Below are positions 1 through 16,136 of a DNA stretch of 64,000 nucleotides, in pieces. The notes beneath the pieces were generated by a model that saw only the letters and a list, made by a program, of their open reading frames with translations, made no database searches and was not told where the DNA came from. Each line of letters starts with the position of its first letter. Within the stretch, counting starts at the first letter, position 1. The position numbers and the translations under genes were made by a program. This DNA is from Chitinophaga filiformis (GTDB lineage Bacteria; Bacteroidota; Bacteroidia; Chitinophagales; Chitinophagaceae). The stretch lies in the NCBI RefSeq assembly GCF_900102545.1, contig NZ_FNBN01000001.1:668477-732476 (forward strand), written 5' to 3'.

Positions 1-190
1 GCAGCGAATGATTGCGTTATATGCATATCCCGATTGTACACAACTGGGAGATTGCACCCACCCGGGGTTATCATCCCAACCGGGGTTACACCCCGCCCGG
101 GGTTGCACCCCGCGCTATAAACACGCAGCTCCTAGCGGAGCGGATCGCAGCGAATGATTGCGTTATATACACCCGGGATTGTACCAAACG
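1..190. repeat. GC-rich hairpin repeats and a direct repeat
   Basis: This gene-less stretch holds ordered repeats. A block starting gcagcgaatgattgcgttat occurs at 1-20 and again at 148-167, with similar sequence following each copy. Between them lie three near-identical short palindromes of the form ggggtt-N-acccc (about 64-78, 82-94 and 99-111). They are followed by gcgctataaacac (112-124) and a second small hairpin gctcc-tagc-ggagc (128-141). The same order of hairpin, gcgctataaacac and second hairpin recurs at 9645-9691, so this is a dispersed element and not random GC-rich DNA. Function is unknown. Confidence 0.7.
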
Positions 191-211
191 GAGACATGGT
201 GCTTATTATTC

Positions 212-1183
212 TCACATCGTCCAGTGTTCACGGCGGATAATATCTTCCAGCCGAGCCTTATCTGCCCCCATCTGGGGTTCCAATCCTAATTGCTGCATCA
301 GGCTGTAGCTGTTAATTACACCCTCCTTGAACCAGGGCATTTCTTTGCTTAACACCATCAGCTTTGCGAATCCCTTCATATGCTCTCCTTTCTGGATCAG
401 GAAATACGCATGGGCGGCCCTGAAATGAGGATAATGATAGAATTCACCAGCTATGTTGTCCCAGGTTGCTTCGGTGACAGCCGGATCGGCTTTCAGTAAC
501 GAGATAGCATATACGGGGGAATGTAGCAGGTCCTGTTCAAAACAGACCAGTTCCGGAATCGTCAGCGATTTCCGGTTGTCGTTCAAAAACCGGATACGCA
601 GTACTTCGTTATATAGTTCGTGGGCACGTTCTTCTTTATGGGTATAATGCAGGATATCCCCCAGCAGGATCTTTGCTTTCAGATGATTAGGCGCCAGGTT
701 AAGGGCTTTCTCGGCACGTTCTTCCGCCTCTTTGTATTTAGTGAGGATGAAATAAGACCTGGCCACTGCCATGTGAAAATTGGCATCCGTAAGATCAGGG
801 CCGGTGGCATGTTCTGCCGCCATCTTCAGGGCATGCTCCGGATAGCGGTCTATATTGAAACGCTCTATTACCTGCCAAAGCTTCATGGAATCACCAATAG
901 AATTGTCTAAGATCTTATAAATGATACCACGCCTATCCCAGATGGATTTCACTTCTTTCCAGGCTTCAAACTCCTCAGGAAAAGCGATGGCGAAAGGGAT
1001 TACTTCATTAGTTTCTTCTGAGCGGACCCTCATACTCATCTCTTCTTTGGGTCTGCTGGTATAACGTGCGGCAGCTGCCAGGAATTCTTTGTCAAATAAC
1101 TCTATATCTGTCAATACCGGGGCAGGAATGCCCTGCCTGTTCCTGTTGTTTCTAAGGCCAAATAAGTTAGCGAAAATGCCCAT
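212..1183 (-). CDS. Tetratricopeptide repeat protein
   Basis: Predicted cytoplasmic protein of 323 residues. I start it at the ATG at 1181-1183 (MGIFANLFGLRNN) because the 12 residues further upstream lack protein-like character. The middle contains TPR helices: a segment near the DANFHMAVARSYF and YKEAEERAEKALNLAPNH stretches matches the TPR pattern of small residues at positions 8, 20 and 27 with a closing Pro. No catalytic motif, signal peptide or membrane segment is visible. TPRs usually bind partner proteins, but the partner cannot be read from the context; the next gene points the other way. It could equally be described as a hypothetical protein with TPRs. Confidence 0.8.
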   Translation of the reverse strand: MGIFANLFGLRNNRNRQGIPAPVLTDIELFDKEFLAAAARYTSRPKEEMSMRVRSEETNEVIPFAIAFPEEFEAWKEVKSIWDRRGIIYKILDNSIGDSMKLWQVIERFNIDRYPEHALKMAAEHATGPDLTDANFHMAVARSYFILTKYKEAEERAEKALNLAPNHLKAKILLGDILHYTHKEERAHELYNEVLRIRFLNDNRKSLTIPELVCFEQDLLHSPVYAISLLKADPAVTEATWDNIAGEFYHYPHFRAAHAYFLIQKGEHMKGFAKLMVLSKEMPWFKEGVINSYSLMQQLGLEPQMGADKARLEDIIRREHWTM

Positions 1184-1333
1184 ATCCGAAAATCTGAAAT
1201 TGTTTTGCAAGATATACAAAATATATACATATTATTTATAATACCATTTGAATAAATTAAAGGGAACAGTCGCCAATTATCTTTAAATTAGGACAGGAAG
1301 CGAAGTATTCAGGATTTATCATATATCAACCAA

Positions 1334-2917
1334 ATGTCAATTTCAAGAAGAGCCTTCTTATCCCAGACAGGGAAAGTAGCCGCTGCCTATCCCGCTATGC
1401 TGGCACTGGGAATGTTACAAAAAGCCCCCGCCCATGCCTTTGACCTGCAGGGCAATGGAAATGGTAAACGTATCATTATCCTCGGAGCAGGACTTGCCGG
1501 TCTGACAGCTGCTTATGAGTTAACGAAGCTGGGATACCAGTGTACCATCCTGGAGGCACGTAACAGAGCCGGTGGACGATGCTGGAGTATCCGTAAGGGT
1601 ACCGTTCATCAGGAAACAGATATCGCCCCGCAGACTGCCGCCTTCGACAGTGATCAGTACTTTAATGCAGGCCCCTCCCGCATTCCGCATCATCATGAGC
1701 TGACTATGCATTACTGCCGGGAACTGGGTGTGCCCATACAGGTATACAATAATGTGAACGAGGCCACCTATTTCTTCAGTGAAGGTAAAGGGCCTCTCTC
1801 CAATAAGAAGATCAGGGCCAGAGAGATCCATAATGACCTGCGCGGTTATACGAGCGAACTACTGGCCAAAGCCATTGATCAACAAAAGATTGATACCGCG
1901 CTGAGTAAAGAGGATACTCAAAAGATCCTGGAATATCTCAGGGCCGAAGGCGGACTGGATATCGACAAGCTGTATAAGGCATCCGACAGACGCGGGTTTA
2001 TTGAATCCCCCGGGGCAGGTGATAAACCAGGCAAGATAGGTGATCCTCACCGGCTGGCGGATATCATTTCCTCCGGACTGGCAGACCCCGACTTCTATAA
2101 CGTGGCGGAGTATACGTATGAACTACAGATGACCATGTTCCAGGCCATCGGTGGTATGGATAATATCGCCAGGGCTTTTGAACAACGGGTAGGTAAGATG
2201 ATCCGCTTCGGATGTGAGGTAACAGATATTCTGAATCAGCCGGAAGGCGTGAAGGTCATTTATAAGGATAAGAAAGGCAGCAACGAACTGCAGGGTGACC
2301 TTTGCATCTGTACGCTGCCATTGCCGGTATTGAGCAATGTCCAGCATAATTTCTCTTCCGATGTGAGCCGCGCTATCGATTATGTACCTTATATGGTCAC
2401 CGGGAAGATCGGCTTACAATTCAAAAGAAGGTTCTGGGAAGAAGATGAGCAGATCTTTGGTGGTATTACTCATACCAACAATGAACTGACACAGATCTTC
2501 TACCCTTCTTACGACTATCTCGGTAAAAAAGGTATCCTGCTGGGTTACTATAACTTTCACGACAAAGCAAAGCGGGTAGGCAATCTCACACATACAGAAC
2601 GGGAGAAACTGGCGCTGGAGAAAGGCAGCCTGATACATCCGCAGTATATGAAAGAGTTTGAAACCTCCTTCTCAGTGAGCTGGCATAAGACTCCCTACAG
2701 CATGGGAGGATGGGCATTGTACACCGGCGCTACCCGGCAAACAAACTACAAGAGCTTATTACAAGCAGACAAACAGGTATACTTCGCAGGTGAACACACT
2801 ACCTACCTGAATGCCTGGATGGCAGGAGCATTTGAATCGGCCAGAAGAACAGTAGCTGATATCCATGCCAGGGTAACAGAACAACGTATCACTTATCCCA
2901 CTGCTACAGGCAGTTGA
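1334..2917 (+). CDS. Tat-exported flavin amine oxidase
   Basis: A 527-residue FAD-dependent amine or L-amino-acid oxidase, expected to oxidise an amine to an imine with release of H2O2. The N-terminus is a twin-arginine signal (SRRAFLSQ, Arg 5-6) followed by a hydrophobic stretch ending APAHA, so the folded flavoprotein should act in the periplasm. The ADP-binding fold shows GAGLAG at residues 51-56, an acidic residue at 74 (ILEARNRAGGR) and the GGR motif at 80-82. The C-terminal FAD-binding stretch YFAGEHTTYLNAWMAGA is typical of the monoamine oxidase family. It begins a same-strand run with an exported aminotransferase (35-nt gap) and a Hint-domain protein (12-nt gap). The substrate is not known; the flavoenzyme class is well supported. 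Confidence 0.9.
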   Translation: MSISRRAFLSQTGKVAAAYPAMLALGMLQKAPAHAFDLQGNGNGKRIIILGAGLAGLTAAYELTKLGYQCTILEARNRAGGRCWSIRKGTVHQETDIAPQTAAFDSDQYFNAGPSRIPHHHELTMHYCRELGVPIQVYNNVNEATYFFSEGKGPLSNKKIRAREIHNDLRGYTSELLAKAIDQQKIDTALSKEDTQKILEYLRAEGGLDIDKLYKASDRRGFIESPGAGDKPGKIGDPHRLADIISSGLADPDFYNVAEYTYELQMTMFQAIGGMDNIARAFEQRVGKMIRFGCEVTDILNQPEGVKVIYKDKKGSNELQGDLCICTLPLPVLSNVQHNFSSDVSRAIDYVPYMVTGKIGLQFKRRFWEEDEQIFGGITHTNNELTQIFYPSYDYLGKKGILLGYYNFHDKAKRVGNLTHTEREKLALEKGSLIHPQYMKEFETSFSVSWHKTPYSMGGWALYTGATRQTNYKSLLQADKQVYFAGEHTTYLNAWMAGAFESARRTVADIHARVTEQRITYPTATGS

Positions 2918-2952
2918 TGACATAGATTTTTTTACAACCAAAACGAATTGCT

Positions 2953-4134
2953 ATGAGTACCACCAACTCCATGAACAGGCGTGACTGGCTGAAGACCACA
3001 GCACTGTTTACCGGAGGATTAACAATGCTTCCTCCGGCCCTCAGCCAGCTGCAGGCAGCACCTGCGGTTCCTGTCGCCAGTACTAGCCCCGCTTATGCCA
3101 ATGACATGGCTATCGGCCCCAAGCTACCTGCCAACTTAAAAGCCAGACTGTTTGCCAACGAGAATCCATTCGGTCCTTCTGCCAATGCGAAAAAGGCTAT
3201 TATGGACAGCATTATGACCAGCTATCAGTATCCCATCAGATTGATGCCGGAGCTGGAAGAGAAGATCTGTGCATATGAAGGCATCACACCGGAAATGCTG
3301 ATGCTCAGTTCCGGTTCTTCTCCCCTGCTTTTAGGTACTGCTGTGAGTCTGTGCAGGGATGGCGGCAACATTGTTACCGCCGATCCTACTTATGACGATC
3401 TTCCTACCCGCTGTGAAAAGGTGAACGCCAAATGGATCAAAGTCCCGCTGACTAAAGAATATACACATGACCTGGATGCTATGGAGAAAGCTATTACACC
3501 AGATACTAAGCTGGTGTACATCTGCAATCCTAATAACCCAACAGGTACAATTGTAGATAGCGATAAGCTGAAAGCATTCTGTGAAAGAGTGTCGCAAAAG
3601 ACGACTGTATTTGTGGACGAGGCATATATAGATTATCTGCCGGATGCCGCTGGCACCACATTGATCAGCAGTGTAAAGAAAGGACAGAATATCATTGTGG
3701 CCCGTACCTTCTCAAAAGTATACGGACTGGCAGGATTGCGGTTAGGTTATATTGTGGCACAACCAGCCACCATAGCGAAACTGCAGCCGCATACATCCTG
3801 CAGCTGGGCGGCGCTCTCTGCACCGGCTATCAGCGGTGCATTGGCCAGTTACCAGGACAAGGCCTATATGCAGGAAATAGTGCAAAAAACAACAGAGAGC
3901 AAACAGTTCCTGTATGATACACTGAAGGCGGAAGGCTACAGTTATATTCCGTCACACACGAACTTCGTCATGTTCCCGCTCAAAATGGACGGTGAACGTT
4001 TTGCGGAGGAAATGCTGAAAAGAAGTGTAGGCTTACGCAACTGGAAGATGAACAACCAGGAATGGTGCAGAATCAGTATCGGACGTATGGATGAAATGCA
4101 GGCATTTGCTGCTGCATTCAAGGAATTATCTTAA
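2953..4134 (+). CDS. Tat-exported class I/II PLP aminotransferase (HisC-like)
   Basis: A 393-residue fold-type I aminotransferase resembling histidinol-phosphate aminotransferase. Visible landmarks are NPNNPTG at about 192-198, DEAY at 222-225, the PLP lysine in TFSKVYGLAGLR (Lys255) and the phosphate/carboxylate arginine that follows. Unlike biosynthetic HisC it carries a twin-arginine signal (MNRRDWLKTTALFTGG) with a long hydrophobic region and a probable cleavage after LQAAP. It is therefore predicted to be exported with its PLP. It sits 35 nt after a Tat flavin amine oxidase and 12 nt before a Hint-domain protein, which suggests one pathway acting on the same extracytoplasmic amino compound. 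A role in histidine synthesis is unlikely because no other his genes are near and the protein is secreted. Confidence 0.9.
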   Translation: MSTTNSMNRRDWLKTTALFTGGLTMLPPALSQLQAAPAVPVASTSPAYANDMAIGPKLPANLKARLFANENPFGPSANAKKAIMDSIMTSYQYPIRLMPELEEKICAYEGITPEMLMLSSGSSPLLLGTAVSLCRDGGNIVTADPTYDDLPTRCEKVNAKWIKVPLTKEYTHDLDAMEKAITPDTKLVYICNPNNPTGTIVDSDKLKAFCERVSQKTTVFVDEAYIDYLPDAAGTTLISSVKKGQNIIVARTFSKVYGLAGLRLGYIVAQPATIAKLQPHTSCSWAALSAPAISGALASYQDKAYMQEIVQKTTESKQFLYDTLKAEGYSYIPSHTNFVMFPLKMDGERFAEEMLKRSVGLRNWKMNNQEWCRISIGRMDEMQAFAAAFKELS

Positions 4135-4146
4135 CTAACAGACTGT

Positions 4147-5130
4147 ATGAAAAAATATCTGCTTACATTAATCTCTTCTGTTTGCATACTGCAGGCAATG
4201 GCGCAATCCCGCCCTATCACTACTGCTGAATATGTGAAGGCAAAGTCGTTTACGGTGAAAGACCTGGATAACGATACTTATGTAAAGTTCAACAATGCCT
4301 ATGTATTAGACCGCTATGAAATGCGGAAACCTTATTTCATTACCGGCGATGATGGTCAGAAAAAAAGGATAGACCTGTACCGGTTGGTAGCGAAAGATAG
4401 CATGCAGGAGATTGCAACTGTCATCTTTTACACCAATGAAAGCGGCAAGCTGTATACTGCTGTAATGCCACTTTTCAACAGCAATGCTGATATCTGGAAC
4501 CAATATTTTGAGGATATTCATGCTATTGATAAAGTTGAGAAGAACTATGTGCTGAAACTGTCTTATGTATTGTCCAAAGAGTTCAGTTATCAGTTGTACA
4601 AAACCATGAACGCAGGTAAGAACGTGAAAGAAGAAGCAGGCACTTATGGTACGGATATCTGTTTCCCGGGAGACCAGCTGGTTACATTAGCCAATGGAAC
4701 GCAGAAAGAATTGCGGGATATCCATCCGGGAGATGAGATCATCAGTCCTGATGCAGCTACTCACCAGACCAGCATTATTCGTGTAAAGGAGCTGGTGAAA
4801 CATACCGCTGAAAACTATGCTATCACGCGTTTGCTGGTTATGCATGCAGCTGAACAGGAAGCCGCAGGTGCACATGTCGTTACCTTGTCAGGCAAGGTAT
4901 TACAGGCAACACCGAACCATCCCGTGCTGACGATTGCAGGTAAAAAGCAGATGGGTACTGTGACAGCAGGCGATCAGCTGCTTTGTATGGATGAACACAC
5001 CAAAACACTCGTCACATATACCGTTGTAAATAAAACAGAAGCTGCCGGGGGCAAGCAGGCTGTCTACAACATTGTAGCAGAAGGCGGAGACGCCTTTATG
5101 ATGAACAATATCATGGTATTACAGAAATAG
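4147..5130 (+). CDS. Secreted protein with C-terminal Hint (hedgehog/intein) domain
   Basis: A 327-residue protein with a Sec signal peptide (MKKYLLTLISSVCILQAMAQ). Residues 21-170 form a domain I do not recognise. From Cys172 a Hint module starts: CFPGDQLVTLANGTQKEL, then the conserved GD of IHPGDEI (195-196), and later TPNHPV (255-260), which matches the intein block B TxxH. The segment ends without the usual C-terminal His-Asn pair or a C-extein. If active it might therefore cleave at its N-side (Cys172, releasing residues 21-171) but not splice. It is the last gene of the amine oxidase/aminotransferase run, 12 nt after the aminotransferase. Whether autoprocessing occurs cannot be judged from the sequence. 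Confidence 0.85.
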   Translation: MKKYLLTLISSVCILQAMAQSRPITTAEYVKAKSFTVKDLDNDTYVKFNNAYVLDRYEMRKPYFITGDDGQKKRIDLYRLVAKDSMQEIATVIFYTNESGKLYTAVMPLFNSNADIWNQYFEDIHAIDKVEKNYVLKLSYVLSKEFSYQLYKTMNAGKNVKEEAGTYGTDICFPGDQLVTLANGTQKELRDIHPGDEIISPDAATHQTSIIRVKELVKHTAENYAITRLLVMHAAEQEAAGAHVVTLSGKVLQATPNHPVLTIAGKKQMGTVTAGDQLLCMDEHTKTLVTYTVVNKTEAAGGKQAVYNIVAEGGDAFMMNNIMVLQK

Positions 5131-5160
5131 AAAAAGAGGGAGCATCAAAAATAAATTTGT

Positions 5161-5248
5161 GTCCTTAGAATTGCTTAAATAACTACCTGTCACCATCAGG
5201 TACCCGAATAAGAAGAGCCTGCATCATGTTTTTGATACAGGCTCTTCT
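5161..5248 (-). terminator. Terminator cassette, copy A of a duplicated 88-nt sequence
   Basis: Downstream of the minus-strand EF-G gene stands an intrinsic terminator (stem agagcctg / caggctct, 5214-5245), plus a second small inverted repeat, acctg...caggt, at 5184-5202. The whole 88-nt block recurs at 19221-19308 with 8 differences. Both copies follow a minus-strand gene in the same orientation. It probably also catches plus-strand transcripts from the Hint gene. Confidence 0.75.
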
Positions 5249-5254
5249 TCTTTG

Positions 5255-7333
5255 TTAGTGTTCCACCAGTATTTTACTGGCAATACTATTCGGTACCAGT
5301 TGATAATCCTGGAATGTAACAGATGCAGCAGCTCTTCCTGAGGAAAGCGTACGCAAGGTGGTCACATATCCGAACAGATCTGACAAGGGTACTTCCGCTT
5401 TGATATACTGGGCACTCGCCTTCATCTCCATTCCACGGATCACACCACGACGCCTGTTCAGATCACCCGTGATAGCGCCGGTATGTTCTTCCGGCAGGGT
5501 CACTTCCACACTCATGAAAGGCTCCAGCAAACGGGGAGCCGCTTTCGCAGCTGCCACACGGAAGCCCATCAGGGCAGCATGTTCAAAGTCCAGCGCATGA
5601 GAGTCTTTCTCATGGATATCGCCGTCCAGCAAGCGCACCCGCATGGATTGTACTGGATAACCCGCCAGCACACCATTCTGCATCGCTTCTTCAAAGCCTT
5701 TCTTCACAGAAGGGATGAACTCACGCGGGATAGCGCCGCCGGTGACTTCATTAATAAACTCCAGACCTGGTTGTCCGTCTTCACGCGGCGACAGTTCAAA
5801 TACGATCTCCGCAAAGTTGCCAGAGCCACCGTTCTGTTTCTTATACACCTCTTTGTGTTGCACTGTGTTGGTGAACACTTCTTTGTAAGCGATCTGCGGT
5901 TGGCCTTTGTTGATCTCCAACTGGTAATTGGTGGCCAGTTTTTCCAGCACCACTTCCAGGTGCAACTCGCCCATTCCTTTGAGGATGGTCTGACCGGAAG
6001 CCGCATCGACGGTTACTGTCAGGGTAGGATCTTCTTCCACCAACTTCGCAAGCGCCTCACCCAGTCTGTTCACATCCTTGGCTACCTTCGCCTCGATAGC
6101 ATAACCCATCATCGGTTCAGGGAAGCTGATCTTCTCCAGCAATACAGGTCTGTCCGGATCGGACAGGGTATCGCCGGTACGCACATCCTTCAGACCTACT
6201 ACCGCACCGATATCACCAGCACTGATCACATCTGCGGTTTCATATTTGTCAGACATGATACGCATCAGACGACTGATACGCACCTTCTTACCGGTACGAC
6301 CATTCCATACAGTATCACCTGTACGTAAAGTACCTGCGTATACTCTCACAAAGGTCAATTTGCCGGCATAATCATCAGAGATGATCTTAAAGGCCAGGGC
6401 AGCAAACGGACTTTCTTCTGTAGTAGTGACCTGCATGCTTTCCTCCGTTTCCGGGTCCGTAACATGTATCTCTTTCACATCTGCCGGAGCAGGGAGATAG
6501 CGGACTACAGCATCCAGCAATGGCTGTACACCTTTATTGCGATAGGCAGCACCTGCCAGTACAGGAATAACCTGCATCTGTAAGGTAGCACTGCGCAAGG
6601 CACGATAGATTTCTTCTACGGATACAGTAGCAGGATCAGTGGTATAGCTTTCAAAAATGCGTTCGTCATATAATGACAGCTCTTCCAGCAATGTAATACG
6701 TGCCTGTTCAGCATCCGCTAGCATATCGGCCGGGATGTCTGTAACGGTATATGTTTTACCATCCTGACTATCCCATACATAAGCCTTCATCGTGATCAGA
6801 TCAATCACACCGGAGAAAGCATCTTCTGCACCAATAGGCAATTGCACGGGCACTGCATTCGTATGTAATACATCACGGATCTCTTTCACGACGCGACGGA
6901 AGTCAGCGCCCTGTCTGTCCATCTTATTGATCATCACAATACGTGGCACATGATAACGATTGGCCTGTTGCCATACCGTTTCAGACTGTGGCTGTACACC
7001 TGATTTCGCACAGAACACCGCAATGGCGCCATCCAGTACACGCAGGGAGCGTTCTACTTCTGCAGTGAAATCAACGTGACCCGGCGTGTCTATAATATTC
7101 ACCTGGTATTTATTACCATCGAGTTGCCACCAGGTAGTGATAGCCGCAGAGGATATGGTGATACCACGTTTCTCTTCCTGCGGATCGCTATCCATGACGG
7201 TATTTCCTTCATCAACACTACCTAACTTGTGTGTAAGTCCTGTGTAATACAGCATGCGTTCTGTAACGGTTGTTTTACCGGCATCCACATGCGCCATGAT
7301 TCCTATATTTCTGAACAGTTCCTGTCGTTTCAT
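5255..7333 (-). CDS. fusA: Elongation factor G-type translational GTPase (orphan paralogue)
   Basis: A 692-residue EF-G-like GTPase that should promote ribosome translocation or recycling. The start is the ATG at 7331-7333 ([22 protein letters not shown]), which fits EF-G N-termini. A longer in-frame reading from 7402 runs through a terminator-like hairpin and is less likely. G motifs are all present: AHVDAGKTT (G1), RGITI (G2), DTPGHVDF (G3), NKMD (G4) and the SAL-like position in domain G. Domains II to V follow, to a normal-length C-terminus. The gene is not next to rpsL, rpsG or tuf, so it is probably a second copy and not the str-operon gene. A strong hairpin with a 7-T run lies in its leader (see the separate entry), suggesting transcriptional attenuation. 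Confidence 0.9.
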
Positions 7334-7354
7334 TTCTATTAATTTTAAAGCAAT

Positions 7355-7387
7355 AAAAAAAGCCTTCCGCTCTGGTAACGGAAGGCT
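7355..7387 (-). promoter_or_regulatory. Terminator-like hairpin in the EF-G leader (candidate attenuator)
   Basis: On the minus strand a 9-bp perfect stem (agccttccg at 7379-7387, loop of 9, cggaaggct at 7361-7369) is followed by seven T residues. It ends about 22 nt before the EF-G start codon. There is no room for a promoter between hairpin and start, so transcripts must read through it. An upstream segment (7412-7418, minus strand ggtaacg) is fully complementary to 7374-7380 (minus strand cgttacc), which overlaps the loop and two stem bases. This allows a competing, antiterminator-like pairing. The signal that would be sensed is unknown. Confidence 0.6.
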
Positions 7388-7603
7388 CGCTGCAATATGC
7401 ATAGCACTATACGTTACCGGACATGCCGTGTAAAGAATATTGTCAATGTTTTGATAATGGCTATCATATTGCGTGTTATAAATGTTGTTAATGAAAATTT
7501 AGTTGAAGCTTAGTGTACGGATATACATATCCCATGTAACAGTTGTTTGTAACTGCTGATGACATGTAACTAAACATTGCTGACTGAAGAATAGGGGGAG
7601 ACA

Positions 7604-7634
7604 AATAAAAAGGCCCCTTCGGATGAAGAGGCCT
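7604..7634 (-). terminator. Intrinsic terminator of the 42-residue peptide gene
   Basis: The stem aggccccctt-like arm 7611-7619 pairs with aagaggcct 7626-7634 with one mismatch, and a T-rich run follows on the minus strand (7604-7610). It lies just after the stop of the small minus-strand gene at 7659 and would end its transcript. Confidence 0.65.
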
Positions 7635-7658
7635 CTGAAGAATATCCAGACACAATAA

Positions 7659-7787
7659 TTAACCTCTCATATCCGGGCAAGGATCTGCCTCCCCGTCTTT
7701 AATTAAGACAATGCAGGTGCTTGCAATTACTGCTCTGATGGCAGCACTTGCGTTGAACGCTGATTGATATGAAAGAATCTTTTTCAT
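7659..7787 (-). CDS. Small peptide of 42 residues, unknown function
   Basis: The ATG at 7785-7787 opens a 42-codon frame: MKKILSYQSAFNASAAIRAV, then an Ile/Val/Cys-containing hydrophobic core, and a polar tail ending in DPCPDMRG. The N-terminus has two lysines and the core is hydrophobic, so it could be a short exported or membrane-bound peptide; no lipobox or processing motif is clear. Two cysteines are present. A matching promoter (TAnnTTTG at 7816-7823) lies upstream and an intrinsic terminator (7604-7634) downstream, so the unit looks like a self-contained monocistronic transcript. No family was recognised. Precursor peptide or toxin-like roles are possible but unsupported. Confidence 0.5.
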   Translation of the reverse strand: MKKILSYQSAFNASAAIRAVIASTCIVLIKDGEADPCPDMRG

Positions 7788-7815
7788 TGTGATTAATGCT
7801 TTTAAATTTCGCGTA

Positions 7816-7846
7816 CAAATGTACGAAGAATTTCGATATAAACAAC
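7816..7846 (-). promoter_or_regulatory. Bacteroidota-type promoter for the 42-residue peptide
   Basis: Minus-strand TACATTTG at 7816-7823 matches the -7 consensus TAnnTTTG. A TTG at 7843-7845, 19 nt upstream, can serve as the -33 element. The -7 box is embedded in the perfect palindrome cgtac-aaat-gtacg (7812-7825), which could also bind a regulator. Confidence 0.5.
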
Positions 7847-8015
7847 AGTGCATATAGTCAGAAGGTAGTTGCATACAACTTCAACTACCTCTTAATTATT
7901 GCAGGAACATTGCTGTTCAAGGATTGTAATAACGTTCACTGGAAGCTTCTGCAATGCTGAATGCTGTATATCTATCTCATTGTCCACAGCTTATTCAAGT
8001 ATATGAGTTTTGCAT

Positions 8016-8759
8016 TTACAGTTGTAATTGAGTATCTACAATATTCAGCTGTCTGTCTTTTTCATTATTGATCATCCATGCTCCCATATTAAACCAGGCA
8101 GCACATTCATCCAATATCCAGGCATCTGAACTACAGACTATTTTATCACCTGTTATCAGGAATTTATCAGGGGAATTTTCAAGATGTATTTCCCAGGGGA
8201 ATTGATGTTTCTCCGCCAGTTCATAACAAAAGCCTTTCAATTTTCCGCTATTGGAAATGGGTGCATCGAAAATCCAGATCGCTTTTGCTACTTCCAATCT
8301 GCGAAGCATTTCACCGATCAATACCAGTACATCTCCGGTTTGATTGATCATTTTATAGGCGCCGTGAACGGATGAGATGTCGCGATAGCATCCGTCCAAT
8401 CCTTTAAATACAAAACCACCGGAATAAGCTGTTTCTAACAGGATTAGCAGATTAAAGCCATCTATATAGATCGTTTTGCTGCGTAATGCTTCAGGAAGTA
8501 GTTCTTTCTGTTTCCGTTGTTGCAGTTGCAGCCCGGAGCAGCTCATTCCCTGTAAAGCCGTCAACTGCCGTTTGACCAGGTTATACCTGTTGCCGACTAA
8601 AGCCAGCGAAGCCTTTATCGGATAGTCTCTGTTGATCAGATAATACATATCTTCCAGCCCCTGCCGTAGTCGATCCTGTGCAGCAGGGTCGCCGAATAAT
8701 GTATGGTCTTCCGGATGCTTTTCTTTGTTTCTGTCGGCTTGTATCCCGTTGTTGTCCAT
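8016..8759 (-). CDS. DUF434 domain protein
   Basis: A cytoplasmic protein of 247 residues, started at the ATG at 8757-8759 because the codon used for a longer reading is TTG. Early in the protein the stretch HPEDHTLFGDPAAQDRLRQGL matches the opening of the DUF434 family. A conserved IDGFNLLILLETAYSGG segment, followed by VFKGLDGCYRDISSVHG, matches the accompanying C-terminal domain found with DUF434. The IDG and later DAP segments resemble nucleotide- or metal-binding loops, but the family has no assigned reaction that I know. It lies 64 nt beyond AlkB on the same strand and may share its transcript. Confidence 0.75.
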   Translation of the reverse strand: MDNNGIQADRNKEKHPEDHTLFGDPAAQDRLRQGLEDMYYLINRDYPIKASLALVGNRYNLVKRQLTALQGMSCSGLQLQQRKQKELLPEALRSKTIYIDGFNLLILLETAYSGGFVFKGLDGCYRDISSVHGAYKMINQTGDVLVLIGEMLRRLEVAKAIWIFDAPISNSGKLKGFCYELAEKHQFPWEIHLENSPDKFLITGDKIVCSSDAWILDECAAWFNMGAWMINNEKDRQLNIVDTQLQL

Positions 8760-8822
8760 AGCAGGCAATCGCAATTTAAGGTGCCAGATTAAGCTTTTTC
8801 CCTGAAGTAATGGCCTGGATAT

Positions 8823-9446
8823 CTAACTAATATAATAAACCGGTTTTCCGGCCTCAGAAATGCGAAATGTGAGATTGATACGGGCACCGATCTTTCTGGA
8901 CGTTTTAGGGATATGATGTTCGTAAAGCTCCTGCATGGCTTCTCCCATCAGCAGGAAGCTGCCATGGGTTAAGGGGATGTCCAGGAGGGCCACTCCCACA
9001 TGATTCTTAGGTCTTACCTTAAAAAGCCTGGTTTCTCCGAAGGTGACAGAGGCTATAGGGTGGTGCCTGCCGTCCTTGGGTAATGTATCACTGTGCCAGG
9101 AAACGGAATCATTTCCGTCCCGGTAGTAGTTCAGCAGCACCCGGTCAAATTCGATACCGCATTCTGCTTCAACTTTAGCTTTGATCTCCAGCAGCTCTGC
9201 CGTCCATTCCAATCCCTTGTCGCCTCCATAATAGGCGGTTAAACGGGGATCCGGGAGGATTCTGTCATACATTTTCCGGGTTCGCTGTTGCCAGGGGGGG
9301 GTGTCTTTGAGTAATTTGAAGTATTTATCTGACTCGGCCTTAGAGAAAAATTGCTCCCAGAGTCTGAGCTCTGTACCGGGTAATTGAAAATCTACATAAC
9401 GCCTTGTCCCCTCATCAAACAGTTCACAATCATCAAAAAGTTGCAT
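8823..9446 (-). CDS. alkB: AlkB-type 2-oxoglutarate/Fe(II) dioxygenase (DNA alkylation repair)
   Basis: A 207-residue dioxygenase that should oxidatively remove alkyl groups from damaged nucleic-acid bases. The iron ligands are visible as HxD in SVSWHSDTL and the distal His in YEHHIPK. The 2-oxoglutarate and substrate signature RxNxTxR is intact in RINLTFR near the C-terminus. A substrate-loop aromatic cluster (LTAYYGG) precedes. I start at the ATG at 9444-9446; the longer reading begins with TTG inside a good -7 promoter box. That promoter would place the transcript start within a few bases of the ATG, making the mRNA nearly leaderless. A 14-bp palindrome covers the upstream promoter region. 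The 247-residue DUF434 gene follows on the same strand. Confidence 0.88.
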   Translation of the reverse strand: MQLFDDCELFDEGTRRYVDFQLPGTELRLWEQFFSKAESDKYFKLLKDTPPWQQRTRKMYDRILPDPRLTAYYGGDKGLEWTAELLEIKAKVEAECGIEFDRVLLNYYRDGNDSVSWHSDTLPKDGRHHPIASVTFGETRLFKVRPKNHVGVALLDIPLTHGSFLLMGEAMQELYEHHIPKTSRKIGARINLTFRISEAGKPVYYIS

Positions 9447-9452
9447 AGGGTA

Positions 9453-9460
9453 CAAAGGTA
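9453..9460 (-). promoter_or_regulatory. -7 box of the alkB promoter
   Basis: Minus-strand TACCTTTG fits TAnnTTTG exactly. The predicted start point is about 9446-9448, directly at the chosen ATG. The -33 position falls within the palindrome at 9470-9502, so binding there would block the polymerase. Confidence 0.45.
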
Positions 9461-9469
9461 CGGGAATAA

Positions 9470-9502
9470 TATCAAAATGCTAAAAATATTAGCATTTTGA
9501 TA
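9470..9502. repeat. 14-bp perfect inverted repeat upstream of alkB (candidate operator)
   Basis: tatcaaaatgctaa (9470-9483) is the exact reverse complement of ttagcattttgata (9489-9502), separated by 5 nt. It covers the -33 zone of the alkB promoter and has no T-run, so an operator is more likely than a terminator. Confidence 0.6.
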
Positions 9503-9530
9503 ACTTCGCCGAGGGATATCCGACACGCTT

Positions 9531-9585
9531 TATACACGGCGTATACACGGGATATACACGACGCATCCCCGACGCATACGTGGAC
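9531..9585. repeat. Tandem 11-bp repeats, five units
   Basis: Consecutive 11-mers read tatacacggcg, tatacacggga, tatacacgacg, catccccgacg, catacgtggac. The exact 11-nt spacing puts each unit about one helical turn from the next. The gacg ending is shared with the 11-mers at 9807-9850 and 37974-38006. Confidence 0.65.
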
Positions 9586-9644
9586 CGATAACATTTTGTG
9601 ACGGACACCACACGGGGCCGGGCCGCCGCCCGCATTTTGTCCCC

Positions 9645-9691
9645 GGGGTTATCACCCCGCGCTATAAACACAAAGACCCCTACCGGGGTCT
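9645..9691. repeat. Dispersed hairpin element, second copy
   Basis: The block ggggttatcacccc (9645-9658), gcgctataaacac (9659-9671) and the hairpin agacccc-tacc-ggggtct (9674-9691) repeats the layout seen at 99-141. The central 13 bases are identical, while the second hairpin differs in sequence but keeps its pairing, which suggests selection on structure. Confidence 0.65.
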
Positions 9692-9806
9692 ATGGACGCG
9701 GATAATCCGGTATTGTTAGTATGTCTTGCTTAGTGAGGGCCTCCAGTCCCGCGGTAATGCCCACATTTTTATGCCAGTTTGACATTAATCGCTTTACCGT
9801 CGGAGA

Positions 9807-9850
9807 TTCGACGCTAGTTCGACGCTTGTTCGACGCTTGTTCGACCACTG
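9807..9850. repeat. Tandem 11-bp repeats, four units (ttcgacgcttg type)
   Basis: Units ttcgacgctag, ttcgacgcttg, ttcgacgcttg, ttcgaccactg lie head to tail in a gene-less stretch (9447-9929). The same unit, in rotated phase ttgttcgacgc, appears downstream of the GH2 gene at 37974-38006. Confidence 0.7.
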
Positions 9851-9929
9851 ATATCGGCCCCAAAAATGCCAGTTTTGCAGCATCACACTGAGAAAGACCT
9901 AGTCCTTCTCCTCTCTTAGCCTTTTTAGC

Positions 9930-9995
9930 TTATCGCGCCCTCAATATAACCAATACAATGATGGCAATAAAGGCGATGATTGTTCCGATATCCAT
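9930..9995 (-). CDS. Possible 21-residue single-span membrane peptide
   Basis: Twelve bases after the lyase stop codon, an ATG (9993-9995) opens MDIGTIIAFIAIIVLVILRA plus Arg and a TAA stop. Nearly the whole peptide is a hydrophobic helix with a basic C-terminus, the layout of small bacterial membrane proteins. The spacing suggests co-transcription with the lyase. It is too short for statistical support and could be chance, though uninterrupted hydrophobicity with a charged end is unusual in random sequence. Confidence 0.35.
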   Translation of the reverse strand: MDIGTIIAFIAIIVLVILRAR

Positions 9996-10007
9996 GTCTC
10001 TATTACT

Positions 10008-11156
10008 TTATAACCATATCAGTGGATGCCGTATGGGCAGATTACGCACCACCTCGGCATTGGACGGCTGGTGGTCCAGTTTTTTCCAGGTATCTAACCA
10101 TTCCTGTTGCTGATACGCCTCAGCGCCAAATACCAGGAAAGGGTGTGCTACCGGCCATTCGTCCCAATACATGACATCTTTTTTATAAGGCCATTTTCCC
10201 TTGTCGGCTACATATGGGTACAGGAAAGTGATCCCTTTTTTAATGCTGCGGCCGTCAGGTAACTGGTATGTCCATAAGTCATTTTCCTTGTCGGAAAGGA
10301 TCTGGCAGGTAGTGACCATGGCATCCAGGTTGAACAGGGAGTACCCGTAAGGCTTCGTTCTGGCCAATTCCAGCGGGAAGCTGCCATCGGCAGCCATCTG
10401 GTTAGGTAGTAGCACCTGTTTGTACCTGTCCCGGCAAAAGCGCAATAAAGCCGTATCACCGGTGAAGCGGGCAAAACAGGCTGTCTGCATCACCCAGCAG
10501 GTGCCGTGATTGTTCTTCGCATTCATCTCATCCTTGCCATACTGATGGGTTGTCAGCCAATGCAGGTAATCTGTAAACCATCCCCGGATACCTTTTAACA
10601 ACCTTTTATCAAAGGCAGGGGCATCCTGCATGACAAATACTCCCTGGGCCACCTCCATGAGGTGGATGGCGTCAATAATACCGATGCCCCTGCCGGAGAA
10701 TCTACCCTTAATAGCCTGGGCATATTGCAGGTTAGGATGCATAAGGGTAGCGGTATCTGTGAACCATGCACGTAAATGCGGCAAGGCTTCCCGAACATAG
10801 ACGGTATTACCCGTAATACGATAGGCAGACGCTAATGCGCCTATGATCCGGCTGAAACGGATCATCGCATGACGATGGGCAACAAAGTTGTCAGGGTTAG
10901 TCATACCATCCTTTTGGATATAAGGACTATCCGGATGAGCAGGATTAGGCCACCAATAATCGCCTTCAGAGTAAAAATCATGCTTACCTCCTACACTGCG
11001 TGAACAGGTTTCTGCTGTTACCGTGACAGGTTTCTGCTGTTTCGCCCAGGCAGCTTCTTTGAGTACCTGCTCACGCAATACATTGACGATGGTTTTATCC
11101 GGTAGATTAAATGCACTGCATATCAGTAGTATCAGTAAAATCGTAACGTGTTTCAT
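10008..11156 (-). CDS. Alginate lyase-family polysaccharide lyase (PF05426, PL38-like)
   Basis: A 382-residue secreted enzyme with a Sec signal (MKHVTILLILLICSAFNL). It should cleave an anionic polysaccharide by beta-elimination. The architecture is the alpha/alpha-toroid of the alginate-lyase superfamily: the early CSRSVGGKHDFYSEGDYWWP segment, the NNHGTCWVMQ motif in the middle (Asn and His used in catalysis in this superfamily) and the later RTKPYGYSLFNLDAM stretch containing the catalytic-type Tyr. The KNNHGTCW context resembles PL38 glucuronan lyases, so polyglucuronate is as plausible a substrate as alginate. No other uronate-use genes are next to it. A possible tiny membrane ORF follows by 12 nt. 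Confidence 0.82.
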   Translation of the reverse strand: MKHVTILLILLICSAFNLPDKTIVNVLREQVLKEAAWAKQQKPVTVTAETCSRSVGGKHDFYSEGDYWWPNPAHPDSPYIQKDGMTNPDNFVAHRHAMIRFSRIIGALASAYRITGNTVYVREALPHLRAWFTDTATLMHPNLQYAQAIKGRFSGRGIGIIDAIHLMEVAQGVFVMQDAPAFDKRLLKGIRGWFTDYLHWLTTHQYGKDEMNAKNNHGTCWVMQTACFARFTGDTALLRFCRDRYKQVLLPNQMAADGSFPLELARTKPYGYSLFNLDAMVTTCQILSDKENDLWTYQLPDGRSIKKGITFLYPYVADKGKWPYKKDVMYWDEWPVAHPFLVFGAEAYQQQEWLDTWKKLDHQPSNAEVVRNLPIRHPLIWL

Positions 11157-11222
11157 GGGTTATCAACATTCTGTTCTACATAATACAAAAACTCCTGTGA
11201 TAATTTTTGCTAAATTGCCCGG

Positions 11223-12062
11223 ATGAGAAAAGGACTACCTATATTTATCCTGACTGCCTGCATATTGGGTGCATTCTCCTGTTCAGGACAGACCCTCAAG
11301 CCGCTTGATGTAGCCAAAGCGATCTTTGACCCAAAAACTACTCCTGATTTTGTCAATCAACATAGTACCGGCGATTATAGCGGCCACCCGAACGGACTGG
11401 ATATGCCTGCAACAGCAAACGCGTCTTTCCTGCTTATCCAGCAGACAGACAGTAATGCAGTAGTCGCGATGAACACCCAGGACAGTAAAGGAAAGACAAC
11501 AGATAAATATCTTTTCTTTACAAAAGACAGTTCCCGCTGGAAAATGTATGCTATGGCAACTCCTACACTTGCCCGCCTGCACGAACATAGAAAGCAGGAA
11601 ATGGAAGCAATATCTTCAGCTCAGCTGGATAGTCTTATCGCTATTTATCAGCACCAGGAGTATTCGCCCTATAAAAGTAAAGAAGAGTTTTTCTTTATAC
11701 TGAATAGCCTGCGCCTGAAGTTAGCTCCTGATGATAGTCTCGTTGCACATTTCCATCGACATAAAGCAACATTTAACCAGCTATTGAAGGAGGTAAATAA
11801 GACGTCAAAATCTCCCGAAACAGAAACTCCGACATTAGTAAATACGCGAACACCAGCGTATAGCCCGCTATTGATCAGCAATGTTACCACTGGTGGATTC
11901 CTGCCTGCTGAATGTATCGACTTTCATATAATGAACGATCAGGTGGGATATCTTTATACTCCTCACAAAAAATATCTGCCTGAATTACGACCAGACAAGG
12001 TCATCATGTTAAGATCGCTGGGAGGCGGATGGTACTTATATAAAGTGAATATCTATTTATAG
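11223..12062 (+). CDS. Secreted or lipid-anchored protein of unknown function
   Basis: A 279-residue protein with an N-terminal signal (MRKGLPIFILTACILGAFSC). Cys20 could be a lipidation site, although the preceding AFS is a weak lipobox. The remainder has no recognisable catalytic or repeat motif. It is rich in polar residues, with a Ser/Thr/Pro-rich linker near residues 197-215 and a compact C-terminal part ending GGGWYLYKVNIYL. It is divergent from the PL38-like lyase with only 66 nt between the start codons, and 89 nt before the GH16 gene, so control with either is possible. I do not recognise the family. Confidence 0.75.
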   Translation: MRKGLPIFILTACILGAFSCSGQTLKPLDVAKAIFDPKTTPDFVNQHSTGDYSGHPNGLDMPATANASFLLIQQTDSNAVVAMNTQDSKGKTTDKYLFFTKDSSRWKMYAMATPTLARLHEHRKQEMEAISSAQLDSLIAIYQHQEYSPYKSKEEFFFILNSLRLKLAPDDSLVAHFHRHKATFNQLLKEVNKTSKSPETETPTLVNTRTPAYSPLLISNVTTGGFLPAECIDFHIMNDQVGYLYTPHKKYLPELRPDKVIMLRSLGGGWYLYKVNIYL

Positions 12063-12151
12063 CATGTTATTTTTTCTCCTGGTATCAAAGTATGTTTTAA
12101 CGGTGTTGTCTAATCTTTAAACATCCATTTAGAAATACAAAAAGGATAACC

Positions 12152-13078
12152 ATGAGAAAAACACAATTGTTAAGCTATTGCCTGTTGGCAATGGCAGGGA
12201 TCACTGCATGCTCAAAGAAAAATGATGCACAGGAACCCAAAAAGAATGAGACAGCTATTGTAGCAGCAGAACCACCTACCGTACAGGTACCCGGTGTTTG
12301 CGAATATGACCTGAACGAGGCTACATTAATCTCACAAGGCTATACGAAAGTATTTGAAGACAACTTCAATACGCTTGACAGTACAAAGTGGGACCGCTGG
12401 AACAGTGGTGCTTATAATAACGAACTGCAGCTGTATACTCCTAAAAACCTTCGCATTGTTGATGGCAAGCTGGTAATTAAACCTGTAAGAGAGAAAGTGA
12501 CCGGGGCTACCGATCCTGATGATCCTACGAAGAAAACATTCAATTTCACTTCCGGCAGAATTGAGTCCAACTATAATTTCAAGGCATCTACGGCTACTCC
12601 CAAAGTGCGTATCTCAGCCCGTATGAAGCTACCTTTGGGTCTTGGTATGTGGCCGGCATTCTGGTCGTACGGTGGTGAATGGCCAACCAATGGTGAACTG
12701 GATATCCTGGAAGGATTTGGAGAAAGAGATCTCTATAACACCAATATCTGGTATGGCGCCCAGGCTGGCACTCCTGATCACGATTACACACTTTCTATGA
12801 CCTATGTAAAGTCGCAGTCCGATCAAACTACCTGCTATCACGTATATGAAGCGATCTGGCAGAAAGATACCGTTACCTTCCTGTTTGATGGAAACATTAT
12901 AAGGAAATTAGTGTCATCAACGCCTGCGGGACAATTCATTCCAAAGTTCTTTAACAGAACACAGCATATTACTTTGAATGCAGCTATTGGCGGGGATCAG
13001 TTTGGAACACTTGATCCGGCAAAAATTGTATTGGGTGATACTTATGTTGACTGGGTGAGAGTGTATACTGCAAAATAA
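12152..13078 (+). CDS. Glycoside hydrolase family 16 lipoprotein (beta-glucanase type)
   Basis: A 308-residue GH16 enzyme that should hydrolyse beta-1,3 or mixed-linked glucans with retention. A lipoprotein signal ends ITAC (Cys20), so it should be anchored to a membrane, possibly the cell surface. The catalytic signature GELDILEGFG contains the nucleophile Glu182, assisting Asp184 and acid/base Glu187. A Trp-rich cleft segment (MWPAFWSYGGEWP) precedes it. The fold ends in the usual YVDWVRVY strand. The family-typical methionine bulge (ExDxxE) is absent, which is the laminarinase/lichenase-like form. A strong terminator follows 8 nt after the stop. Confidence 0.9.
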   Translation: MRKTQLLSYCLLAMAGITACSKKNDAQEPKKNETAIVAAEPPTVQVPGVCEYDLNEATLISQGYTKVFEDNFNTLDSTKWDRWNSGAYNNELQLYTPKNLRIVDGKLVIKPVREKVTGATDPDDPTKKTFNFTSGRIESNYNFKASTATPKVRISARMKLPLGLGMWPAFWSYGGEWPTNGELDILEGFGERDLYNTNIWYGAQAGTPDHDYTLSMTYVKSQSDQTTCYHVYEAIWQKDTVTFLFDGNIIRKLVSSTPAGQFIPKFFNRTQHITLNAAIGGDQFGTLDPAKIVLGDTYVDWVRVYTAK

Positions 13079-13085
13079 TTAAGGT

Positions 13086-13118
13086 AAGACAGCCGGCCTG
13101 GTGGTTGCCGGCTGTCTT
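13086..13118 (+). terminator. Intrinsic terminator after the GH16 gene
   Basis: Perfect 12-bp stem aagacagccggc / gccggctgtctt with a 9-nt loop, starting 8 nt after the GH16 stop codon. The downstream T-run is short (atctt). Confidence 0.75.
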
Positions 13119-13172
13119 ATCTTAATTCGCTTCTTCTGTTATTAATCCAACAGATTCATACTCACAGGTAAT

Positions 13173-13197
13173 AAAAAAACCTGCTAATAAGCAGGTT
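13173..13197 (-). terminator. Intrinsic terminator of the dCTP deaminase unit
   Basis: Stem aacctgc / gcaggtt with a taataa loop, followed on the minus strand by seven T residues. It lies 34 nt past the 66-residue ORF and closes the deaminase transcript. Confidence 0.75.
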
Positions 13198-13230
13198 TCA
13201 ATATTTTATATCTAGTAATCAATTTAGTGA

Positions 13231-14995: not shown

Positions 14996-15167
14996 AAGAC
15001 TAAATTTAAATAATTGATTTATTGATTATAATATCCTGTTGCTATAACCATAAAATCATAACATTCATTCCATCAATTATTCTTAGTCGACTACCAATAC
15101 AGTACACAGCACATCGCCAACGGTGTATAAATTCAATGTGAATAAACAAACATTACAGAACTAGTAT

Positions 15168-16118: not shown

Positions 16119-16136
16119 GTAATACAATTTATAACG

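What the first reader, a model, noticed from the sequence alone, without database searches (positions are those of the whole stretch)
1334..5130. Exported oxidase/aminotransferase/Hint operon
Two cofactor enzymes that normally sit in the cytoplasm both carry twin-arginine signals and are followed by a secreted Hint-domain protein. All three lie within 4 kb with 35- and 12-nt gaps. A periplasmic oxidase and transaminase acting on the same amino group, with a self-processing partner, is not a pathway I know. The Hint module has Cys172 and TPNHP but ends without the final Asn/Cys pair.
Basis: partly seen in the sequence, partly recalled or inferred. Interest (0 to 1): 0.6.

Follow-up and report, generated by a model that had tools for sequence, protein, structure and literature searches.

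The report
Exported amino-acid oxidase–transaminase–Hint operon
Many Bacteroidota carry a conserved three-gene cassette that appears to send an amino-acid oxidase, a transaminase and a hedgehog-like self-cutting protein out of the cytoplasm together; the parts have known relatives, but the combination and the front half of the self-cutting protein matched nothing found here.

Summary
Window 1334-5130 encodes, with 35- and 12-nt gaps: a twin-arginine L-amino-acid oxidase (LAAO) close to Rhodococcus opacus LAAO, a twin-arginine HisC-like aminotransferase (AAT), and a protein with a signal-peptide-like start, a ~150-residue N-domain and a C-terminal Hint domain. The grouping is not accidental: the same 16 of 244 family genomes hold both LAAO and Hint protein, and 76 of 80 loci from public genomes show all three genes, the other 4 running off their contigs. 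Among 395 phylum genomes the N-domain occurs in 11, always fused to Hint and beside an AAT; one of these lacks LAAO. No fourth gene is generally shared.

The Hint model matches the Hedgehog autoprocessing domain (Z 21.1, tied with inteins). Cys172 and TPNHP are invariant in 74 relatives; the intein His-Asn end is replaced by x-Gln-Lys (Asp/Glu-Lys in divergent members).

Most likely: a periplasmic amino-acid oxidation module whose Hint precursor cuts before Cys172 to release or transfer the N-domain. In four plasmid records from other phyla such LAAOs sit beside cytochrome c and/or Rid genes, so their export is not unusual. Conservation and fold are computed; export, cleavage and catalysis are inferred. 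The N-domain's role is unknown.

The parts
1334..2917 (+). L-amino-acid oxidase (LAAO), flavin amine oxidase family, 527 aa, with N-terminal twin-arginine signal (SRRAFL)
   Evidence: PF01593 205.4 bits over cut-off 19.8; PDB 2jae L-amino acid oxidase E 1.4e-100; residues aligned to 2jae R84/Y371/W426/W467 conserved (numbering and roles recalled); invariant RR in A3
2953..4134 (+). class I/II PLP aminotransferase (AAT), HisC/PtaA-like, 393 aa, with twin-arginine signal (NRRDWL)
   Evidence: PF00155 178.8 bits; NCBIfam hisC 248.8 bits, below its cut-off 276.55, PtaA 218.8, below 500; Lys255, Asp222, Arg373 and RR in 71 of 71
4147..5130 (+). precursor protein: signal-peptide-like start + N-domain + C-terminal Hint domain, 327 aa
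4147..4203 (+). putative Sec signal peptide of the Hint precursor (residues 1-19, ending AMA|Q)
   Evidence: read from sequence, no predictor run; helix 2-18 in the model at low confidence; Q20 invariant in A1
4204..4659 (+). N-domain (residues 20-171), uncharacterised; strands followed by two long helices in the model
   Evidence: no Pfam match; no confident fold match: Foldseek best E 0.31, VIA best Z 4.6; median identity to window 67% versus 50% for the Hint part
4660..5127 (+). Hint (hedgehog/intein) domain, residues 172-327
   Evidence: PF01079; Foldseek best E 1.0e-9; VIA 1at0 Z 21.1, rmsd 1.6, 137 aligned, 172..327 to 258..401
4660..4662 (+). Cys172, predicted N-S acyl shift nucleophile
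   Evidence: 74 of 74 Cys; aligned range starts at residue 258 of Hh-C17 (that this is the catalytic Cys is recalled)
4909..4923 (+). TPNHP, block B TxxH motif (Thr255, His258)
   Evidence: 74 of 74
5122..5127 (+). C-terminal Gln326-Lys327, at the place of the intein Asn and the residue after it
   Evidence: 74 of 74 QK; 73 of 79 ORFs end exactly there; intein alignment

Best explanation
The three genes are one conserved periplasmic amino-acid-oxidation module of Bacteroidota. The LAAO, exported folded with FAD by Tat, oxidises free L-alpha-amino acids (perhaps aromatic ones such as Trp) to imino/keto acids plus peroxide. The AAT, exported with PLP by Tat, exchanges amino groups between the resulting keto acids and other amino acids in the same compartment. 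The third protein is exported by Sec as a precursor; its Hint domain folds, makes a thioester at Cys172 and cuts the chain there in the hedgehog manner (no splicing, because the intein His-Asn end is missing). This releases, or transfers to a nucleophile, the N-domain, which is the conserved payload and serves as the dedicated partner of the enzymes, most likely of the AAT. Shown by computation: family assignments, conservation of the gene set, correlated divergence, active-site residues, Hint fold of the model. Inferred: export, chemistry, cleavage, and the partner role of the N-domain.
For: Same 16 of 244 family genomes have LAAO (E<=1e-60) and Hint protein; AAT beside Hint in 16 of 16, all three in order in 15 of 16, the 16th cut by a contig end. 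In 80 genome-contig loci, 76 show all three genes in order (74 by ORFs; L077 by tblastn; L114 with LAAO cut by the contig end) and the other 4 run off the contig; these loci overlap in part with the family sample. In 395 phylum genomes: LAAO in 10, all 10 with the Hint protein; N-domain in 11, all 11 fused to Hint and beside an AAT. Distance matrices correlate r 0.88-0.90 over 71 of 80 loci. No fourth gene family is found in more than 14 of the 80 loci or 5 of 16. LAAO and AAT keep residues expected to bind an alpha-carboxylate (LAAO R116/Y406, AAT R373; roles recalled). Hint residues and fold. The lao gene of G. diazotrophicus, which its authors aligned to R. opacus LAAO, is required for indole-3-acetate from Trp (PMC5053998, abstract and passages).
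Against: No cleavage, export or activity has been measured. G426 has AAT and Hint but no LAAO at E<=1e-10, so LAAO is not indispensable. Two genomes have the order AAT-LAAO-Hint and two loci carry a second AAT, so order and number are not absolute. The correlated distances may largely reflect common descent; no control pair was computed. A few loci show frame breaks or a stop (L078, L110; L098), which may be assembly errors or decay. The N-domain has no detected relative, so its partner role rests only on linkage and conservation.
Confidence: 0.5

Rival explanations
1. The module is an extracytoplasmic route from tryptophan to indole-3-pyruvate (and on to auxin or other indoles) for life on plants; LAAO and AAT are alternative entry enzymes to the same keto acid and the Hint protein is accessory. 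This would be a special case of the best explanation, not exclusive of it.
For: G. diazotrophicus lao-cccA-ridA is implicated in IAA synthesis by lao insertions (PMC5053998, abstract and passages); [quoted passage not shown] some carriers have rhizosphere names (ecology recalled).
Against: Substrate cannot be told from sequence here; carriers such as Hymenobacter and Adhaeribacter are not mainly plant-associated (recalled); the three genes include no decarboxylase.
Confidence: 0.2
2. The enzymes tailor a larger exported molecule (a peptide, siderophore or a residue on the cell envelope) rather than free amino acids, as PtaA does for pyoverdine, and the Hint N-domain holds or presents that molecule.
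For: AAT scores 218.8 bits to the PtaA model; PtaA is a Tat-exported transaminase also present in species without pyoverdine (PMC6206403 passages).
Against: PtaA score is under the curated cut-off of 500; no further gene family is generally shared next to the cassette (at most 14 of 80 loci), though the flanks were not annotated one by one.
Confidence: 0.15
3. Peroxide weapon or signal: LAAO makes hydrogen peroxide outside the cytoplasm, AAT recycles keto acids to refill its substrate pool, and the Hint protein anchors or regulates the oxidase.
For: LAAO releases peroxide (stated in PMC5053998 passages); cytochrome c relatives of the three plasmid ones were found near only 1 of 96 cassette loci (L136), Rid relatives near none (tblastn E<=1e-3), so oxygen may be the acceptor.
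Against: The AAT-Hint pair without LAAO (G426) makes little sense for a peroxide device. Linked catalase or immunity genes were not looked for.
Confidence: 0.1
4. The Hint domain is no longer an autoprocessing enzyme but a structural fold; the protein is secreted whole.
For: The C-terminal His-Asn is missing; no activity shown.
Against: Cys172, Thr255 and His258 are invariant in 74 of 74 and the Cys and TxxH are kept in the divergent L140-L142; a purely structural Hint would not be expected to hold these.
Confidence: 0.15

Closest known systems
Hedgehog proteins (Hh-C17 Hint autoprocessing domain, 1at0)
   Same: N-terminal payload and C-terminal Hint; CFPG motif A shared with a Sonic hedgehog chain (E 6.2e-4); TxxH; model aligns 172..327 to Hh 258..401 at Z 21.1.
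   Different: N-domain has no Pfam match; the protein ends where the Hint core ends, so no sterol-recognition region; Ile, not Gly, before the Cys; ends Q-K.
Inteins and bacterial intein-like (BIL) domains
   Same: Same fold (Z about 20, tied) and N-terminal Cys plus TxxH.
   Different: No C-terminal His-Asn and no C-extein; x-Gln-Lys instead, so splicing is not expected.
lao-cccA-ridA operon of Gluconacetobacter diazotrophicus (PMC5053998, abstract and passages)
   Same: LAAO aligned by its authors to R. opacus LAAO, in a three-gene unit. In four plasmid records LAAOs 39-47% identical to ours have twin-arginine starts and cytochrome c and/or Rid neighbours.
   Different: AAT and Hint protein instead of cytochrome c and RidA.
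PtaA / PvdN, Tat-exported PLP enzymes of pyoverdine tailoring (PMC6206403, passages)
   Same: PLP enzyme moved folded by Tat, active in the periplasm (for ours inferred).
   Different: AAT is under the PtaA cut-off (218.8 vs 500).
Bacterial proteins with C-terminal Hint-like domain, some with signal peptides (PMC2362128, section 12 and passages)
   Same: Possibly secreted N-terminus plus C-terminal Hint in bacteria.
   Different: Those share two conserved cysteines in the N-region; our N-domain has no invariant Cys. No enzyme partners are mentioned in what I read.

Membership tests
HINT superfamily | Hint fold | tested here: met
   PF01079 over cut-off; Foldseek best E 1.0e-9; VIA Z 21.1, on a predicted model
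HINT superfamily | N-terminal nucleophile Cys and block-B TxxH | tested here: met
   C172, T255, H258 in 74 of 74
HINT superfamily | autocatalytic N-S acyl shift | not testable with these tools
   needs protein chemistry
Intein / BIL-A | C-terminal His-Asn (recalled) | tested here: not met
   V-x-Q-K in 79 of 79 genome-contig loci with a Hint ORF called; Asp/Glu-Lys in the divergent L140-L142
Hedgehog | Hedge N-domain | tested here: not met
   no Pfam match to residues 21-171 even at E 10
Hedgehog | sterol/adduct recognition region after Hint (recalled) | tested here: not met
   ORF ends at residue 327, aligned to Hh 401; 73 of 79 end exactly there, the rest 1-4 residues later
L-amino-acid oxidase, R. 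opacus type | FAD amine oxidase domain | tested here: met
   PF01593 205.4 bits vs 19.8; 2jae E 1.4e-100
L-amino-acid oxidase, R. opacus type | active-site Arg84, Tyr371, Trp426, Trp467 (recalled) | tested here: met
   aligned to R116, Y406, W460, W495, taking chain index + 1 as the published number; 71, 71, 71 and 70 (1 gap) of 71
L-amino-acid oxidase, R. opacus type | oxidase activity | not testable with these tools
   needs assay
HisC (TIGR01141) | curated score cut-off | tested here: not met
   248.8 vs 276.55 bits
PtaA (NF051461) | curated score cut-off | tested here: not met
   218.8 vs 500 bits
PLP aminotransferase class I/II | Schiff-base Lys and carboxylate Arg (positions assigned by motif, recalled) | tested here: met
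   K255 and R373 in 71 of 71
lao-cccA-ridA operon | cytochrome c and RidA neighbours | tested here: not met
   tblastn of three cytochrome c and two Rid proteins from the plasmid loci: one cytochrome c hit near 1 of 96 cassette loci (L136), none in window 1-20000, no Rid hit (E<=1e-3)
Tat substrates | twin-arginine motif | tested here: met
   RR in 70 of 71 LAAO (1 gap) and 71 of 71 AAT; export itself not tested

The most novel reading that the evidence does not exclude
The Hint domain is an amine-accepting conjugating enzyme, a bacterial counterpart of hedgehog: the Cys172 thioester is attacked by an amine, so the N-domain ends up amide-linked. The conserved C-terminal Lys327 sits where inteins have their +1 nucleophile, after a Gln in the Asn position, so either its own side chain takes the N-domain (an isopeptide-branched protein) or it activates an external amine such as an amino acid or aminolipid, linking the processing step to the amino-group chemistry of the two partner enzymes.
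Probability: 0.1. Interest if true: 0.87.

Novelty: new variant of a known kind. Interest (0 to 1): 0.6.

Why it matters
If the reading is right, hedgehog-like autoprocessing is used by free-living bacteria as a fixed part of a periplasmic amino-acid metabolic unit, not in splicing or toxins. That would give a small, genetically tractable bacterial system for hedgehog-type chemistry, a first role for an orphan secreted domain, and an example of an oxidase and a transaminase sharing the periplasm. It may also explain how some root-associated Bacteroidota handle tryptophan and related compounds outside the cytoplasm.

Tried and rejected
Accidental grouping: rejected by conservation. Piece of a larger conserved cluster: no fourth gene family is in more than 14 of 80 loci or 5 of 16; flanking genes were clustered but not annotated one by one, and one family of 8 loci spans several genera at scattered positions. 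Intein: rejected on the missing His-Asn and C-extein. N-domain as a known fold: Foldseek best E 0.31, VIA best Z 4.6 with a PLK1 polo-box and CyanoP tied, PDB profile search best E 0.24; all treated as no result, and this does not show that the fold is new. Viral structure library with the whole model: 115 matches at E<=0.001, 50 listed, many aligned over 160-190 columns and several named Hint; not followed. Plasmid records: no relative of the Hint protein at E<=0.01. Another PF01079 Hint in the same genome at E<=0.01: none besides this one. Sigma-70-type promoter and terminator scans gave counts no better than shuffles (8 vs 7.3 and 4 vs 3.9). Paper searches for the combination: L-amino acid oxidase + Hint domain 0 papers; Hint domain + Bacteroidetes + aminotransferase 0; intein-like/aminotransferase/amine oxidase/operon/Chitinophaga, at least 4 of 5, 0; Hint domain/Chitinophaga/Mucilaginibacter/Hymenobacter, at least 2 of 4, 253 papers, the 6 listed having no 'hint domain'. 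R. opacus LAAO with Arg84: 0. These cover only the open-access library, so an earlier description elsewhere is possible.

Rows dropped: A4 holds the window and 73 of 80 loci (left out by choice as likely redundant, not measured: L061, L062, L063, L066, L069, L109; L098 for a stop). The distance set is 71 of 80 loci (left out L077, L078, L098, L110, L111, L114, L115, L124, L125 as incomplete or short ORFs). A3 has 15 of 16 LAAOs (G122 on a contig end). The 16 family genomes and the 80 loci share contigs, so they are not two independent samples. The genome-contig scan kept the best 80 of 119 relatives, so distant carriers, also outside Bacteroidota, are not excluded.
Full report
What is there. 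The window carries three + strand genes at 1334-2917, 2953-4134 and 4147-5130, with gaps of 35 and 12 nt. The first is a flavin amine oxidase (PF01593, 205.4 bits) whose closest solved relative is the L-amino-acid oxidase 2jae (Rhodococcus opacus, species recalled), E 1.4e-100 over residues 37-517. The second is a class I/II aminotransferase (PF00155) near HisC and PtaA but under both curated cut-offs (248.8 vs 276.55; 218.8 vs 500). The third has a signal-peptide-like start (by eye), an N-domain with no Pfam match and a Hint domain (PF01079, E 5.7e-9). The flanking genes, a TPR protein at 212-1219 (-) and a gene at 5255-7402 (-) that reads as an elongation-factor-G-like GTPase (by eye), lie on the other strand.

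Is the grouping real? Searching 244 genomes of the family, the Hint protein (E<=0.001) was found in 16 and the LAAO (E<=1e-60) in the same 16. AAT is directly upstream of Hint in 16 of 16; the full order LAAO-AAT-Hint is seen in 15 of 16, and in the 16th (G122) the contig ends inside AAT and LAAO lies at another contig end. A scan of public genomes with the Hint alignment gave 119 relatives, of which the best 80 were returned. Their titles name Chitinophaga, Mucilaginibacter, Hymenobacter, Adhaeribacter, Pontibacter, Pedobacter, Rufibacter, Chryseolinea and other Bacteroidota (placement recalled), except one MAG labelled Williamsia (L079), whose sequence lies inside the contig of G077, a genome of the window's own family, so the label is probably wrong. 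Of these 80, 74 show the three ORFs in order; L077 does so by tblastn; L114 does with LAAO cut by the contig end; L111, L115 and L125 lack LAAO and L124 lacks both enzymes because the contig stops there. There is no counterexample among the 80. Some frames are broken: AAT and LAAO in L078, LAAO in L110, a stop in Hint of L098. Identity of the Hint proteins to the window falls to 53% in this set. The two samples share contigs and are not independent.

Wider sample. In 395 genomes of the phylum, LAAO (E<=1e-80) occurs in 10, the Hint alignment (E<=1e-10) in 12 and the N-domain (E<=0.001) in 11, spread over four family labels (f1, f3, f10, f24). All 10 LAAO genomes have the Hint protein. The two extra Hint hits are G402, a different protein that matches in the Hint part only, and G426, which has AAT-Hint but no LAAO at E<=1e-10. 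All 11 N-domains are fused to Hint and lie beside an AAT. In the divergent G485 and G603 (Hint 27-29% identical) the order is AAT-LAAO-Hint; G380 has two AATs in tandem before Hint, and L131 has a further AAT after it. So content persists even when order changes, the AAT-Hint pair is the most constant part, and AAT is the likeliest direct partner of the Hint protein (inference, resting on one genome without LAAO). No flanking gene family is in more than 14 of 80 loci or 5 of 16. Distance matrices of the three proteins correlate at r 0.888, 0.896 and 0.881 over 71 of 80 loci; common descent alone may explain much of that, and no control pair was computed.

The enzymes. Aligned to 2jae, LAAO residues R116, Y406, W460 and W495 fall on chain positions 83, 370, 425 and 466, which I take as R84, Y371, W426 and W467 and recall as the substrate-binding residues of that enzyme; a paper search for them found nothing. 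They are conserved in 71, 71, 71 and 70 (1 gap) of 71. AAT keeps K255, D222, Y225, R263 and R373 in 71 of 71, by motif the PLP lysine and the alpha-carboxylate arginine among them (recalled). Both enzymes therefore should act on alpha-amino acids with a free carboxylate. Twin arginines are present in 70 of 71 LAAOs (one gap) and 71 of 71 AATs, and the genome has TatC. A cruder pattern on raw ORF calls missed the motif in four ORFs (L078, L087, L110, L130), which are broken or have misplaced starts (L087 shows RR in the alignment).

Precedents for export. Among plasmid records, LAAOs with E<=1e-60 occur in 35, all under 60% identical and 38-48% in the 15 listed. In the four inspected, the neighbours are c-type cytochrome (Mesorhizobium, Deinococcus, Paracoccus), Rid (Paracoccus, Metabacillus) and TatA/TatC (Metabacillus), with twin-arginine starts (in Paracoccus upstream of the annotated start) and two Rid proteins with signal-like N-termini. 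No AAT or Hint relative lies within about 5 kb in these four (tblastn E<=1e-3). In the other direction, relatives of those cytochromes were found near only 1 of 96 cassette loci (L136) and of those Rid proteins near none. In Gluconacetobacter diazotrophicus, insertions in lao of a lao-cccA-ridA cluster abolish indole-3-acetate (PMC5053998, abstract and passages). PvdN and PtaA are PLP enzymes moved by Tat (PMC6206403, passages). So Tat export is ordinary for such enzymes; what is new is that Bacteroidota pair this LAAO with an AAT and a Hint precursor.

The Hint protein. AlphaFold2 with 74 sequences gave mean pLDDT 86.8 but pTM 0.52: two well-predicted domains joined by a weak stretch at about 151-170, so their arrangement is uncertain. 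Residues 172-327 match hedgehog Hh-C17 (1at0) at Z 21.1, rmsd 1.6 over 137 residues, with inteins and a BIL domain tied at about 20. Motif A resembles a Sonic hedgehog chain (E 6.2e-4). C172, F173, P174, T255-P-N-H-P259, H219, N320, V324, Q326 and K327 are invariant in 74 of 74. The Cys and TxxH are also kept in the divergent L140-L142, whose ends read D-K, E-K and D-K. In 73 of 79 ORFs the protein ends exactly at this Lys, in the rest 1-4 residues later. The alignment to an intein puts Leu-Gln where inteins have His-Asn (block G recalled). Hedgehog uses only the first N-S acyl shift, and BIL domains mostly give cleaved products (PMC7664689 passages). By analogy, this Hint should cut before Cys172 and not splice. 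Cleavage has not been shown.

The N-domain. It is more conserved than the Hint part (median identity to the window 67% vs 50%), as expected if it is the payload. Its own model (pLDDT 84.4, pTM 0.76) has six strands followed by two long helices. Foldseek (best E 0.31) and VIA (best Z 4.6) give nothing reliable. It contains no invariant cysteine, so it does not fit the two-cysteine bacterial Hint group of PMC2362128 (section 12).

Mechanism and rivals. I favour a periplasmic amino-acid oxidation/transamination module with a hedgehog-like precursor that supplies a partner domain (0.5). Auxin/indole production (0.2) could be a special case of the same chemistry; tailoring of a larger exported molecule (0.15), an inactive Hint (0.15) and a peroxide device (0.1) remain; these odds are not exclusive. 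The boldest reading is that Lys327, at the intein +1 position, or an external amine takes the N-domain from the thioester (0.1).

Limits. Everything is computed from sequence. The literature searched is open access only, mostly as listings and passages. Carriers beyond the best 80 loci and the sampled genomes were not seen.

Noticed in passing
window 1-25 and 147-171: A 25-nt direct repeat (one difference between copies) occurs twice within 171 nt; its 21-nt core has these two exact matches and no other in this genome assembly.
   Followed up: partly
L142 (G426) 9003-11124: AAT-Hint pair in a genome without a LAAO match at E<=1e-10, with another Tat-type AAT about 5.6 kb away; suggests AAT is the core partner of the Hint protein.
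   Followed up: partly
L131 9416-10585 and L143 5944-8386: Second Tat-type AAT beside the cassette (after Hint in L131, two in tandem before Hint in L143); these AATs are 46-57% identical to the window AAT.
   Followed up: no
L078, L110, L098: Broken frames in LAAO and AAT (L078) and LAAO (L110), and a stop in Hint (L098); assembly error or decay.
   Followed up: no
L163, L166: Rid-family proteins beside LAAOs in Metabacillus and Paracoccus plasmids have N-termini that look like Sec signals, i.e. possibly periplasmic imine deaminases.
   Followed up: partly
L136 near 14532: A weak cytochrome c match (30% identical, E 7.7e-7) about 3.5 kb downstream of the cassette, the only one among 96 cassette loci.
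   Followed up: no
window 4147-5130, residue 280: Cys280 in the Hint domain is invariant in 74 of 74 aligned proteins but absent from others such as L024; role unknown.
   Followed up: no
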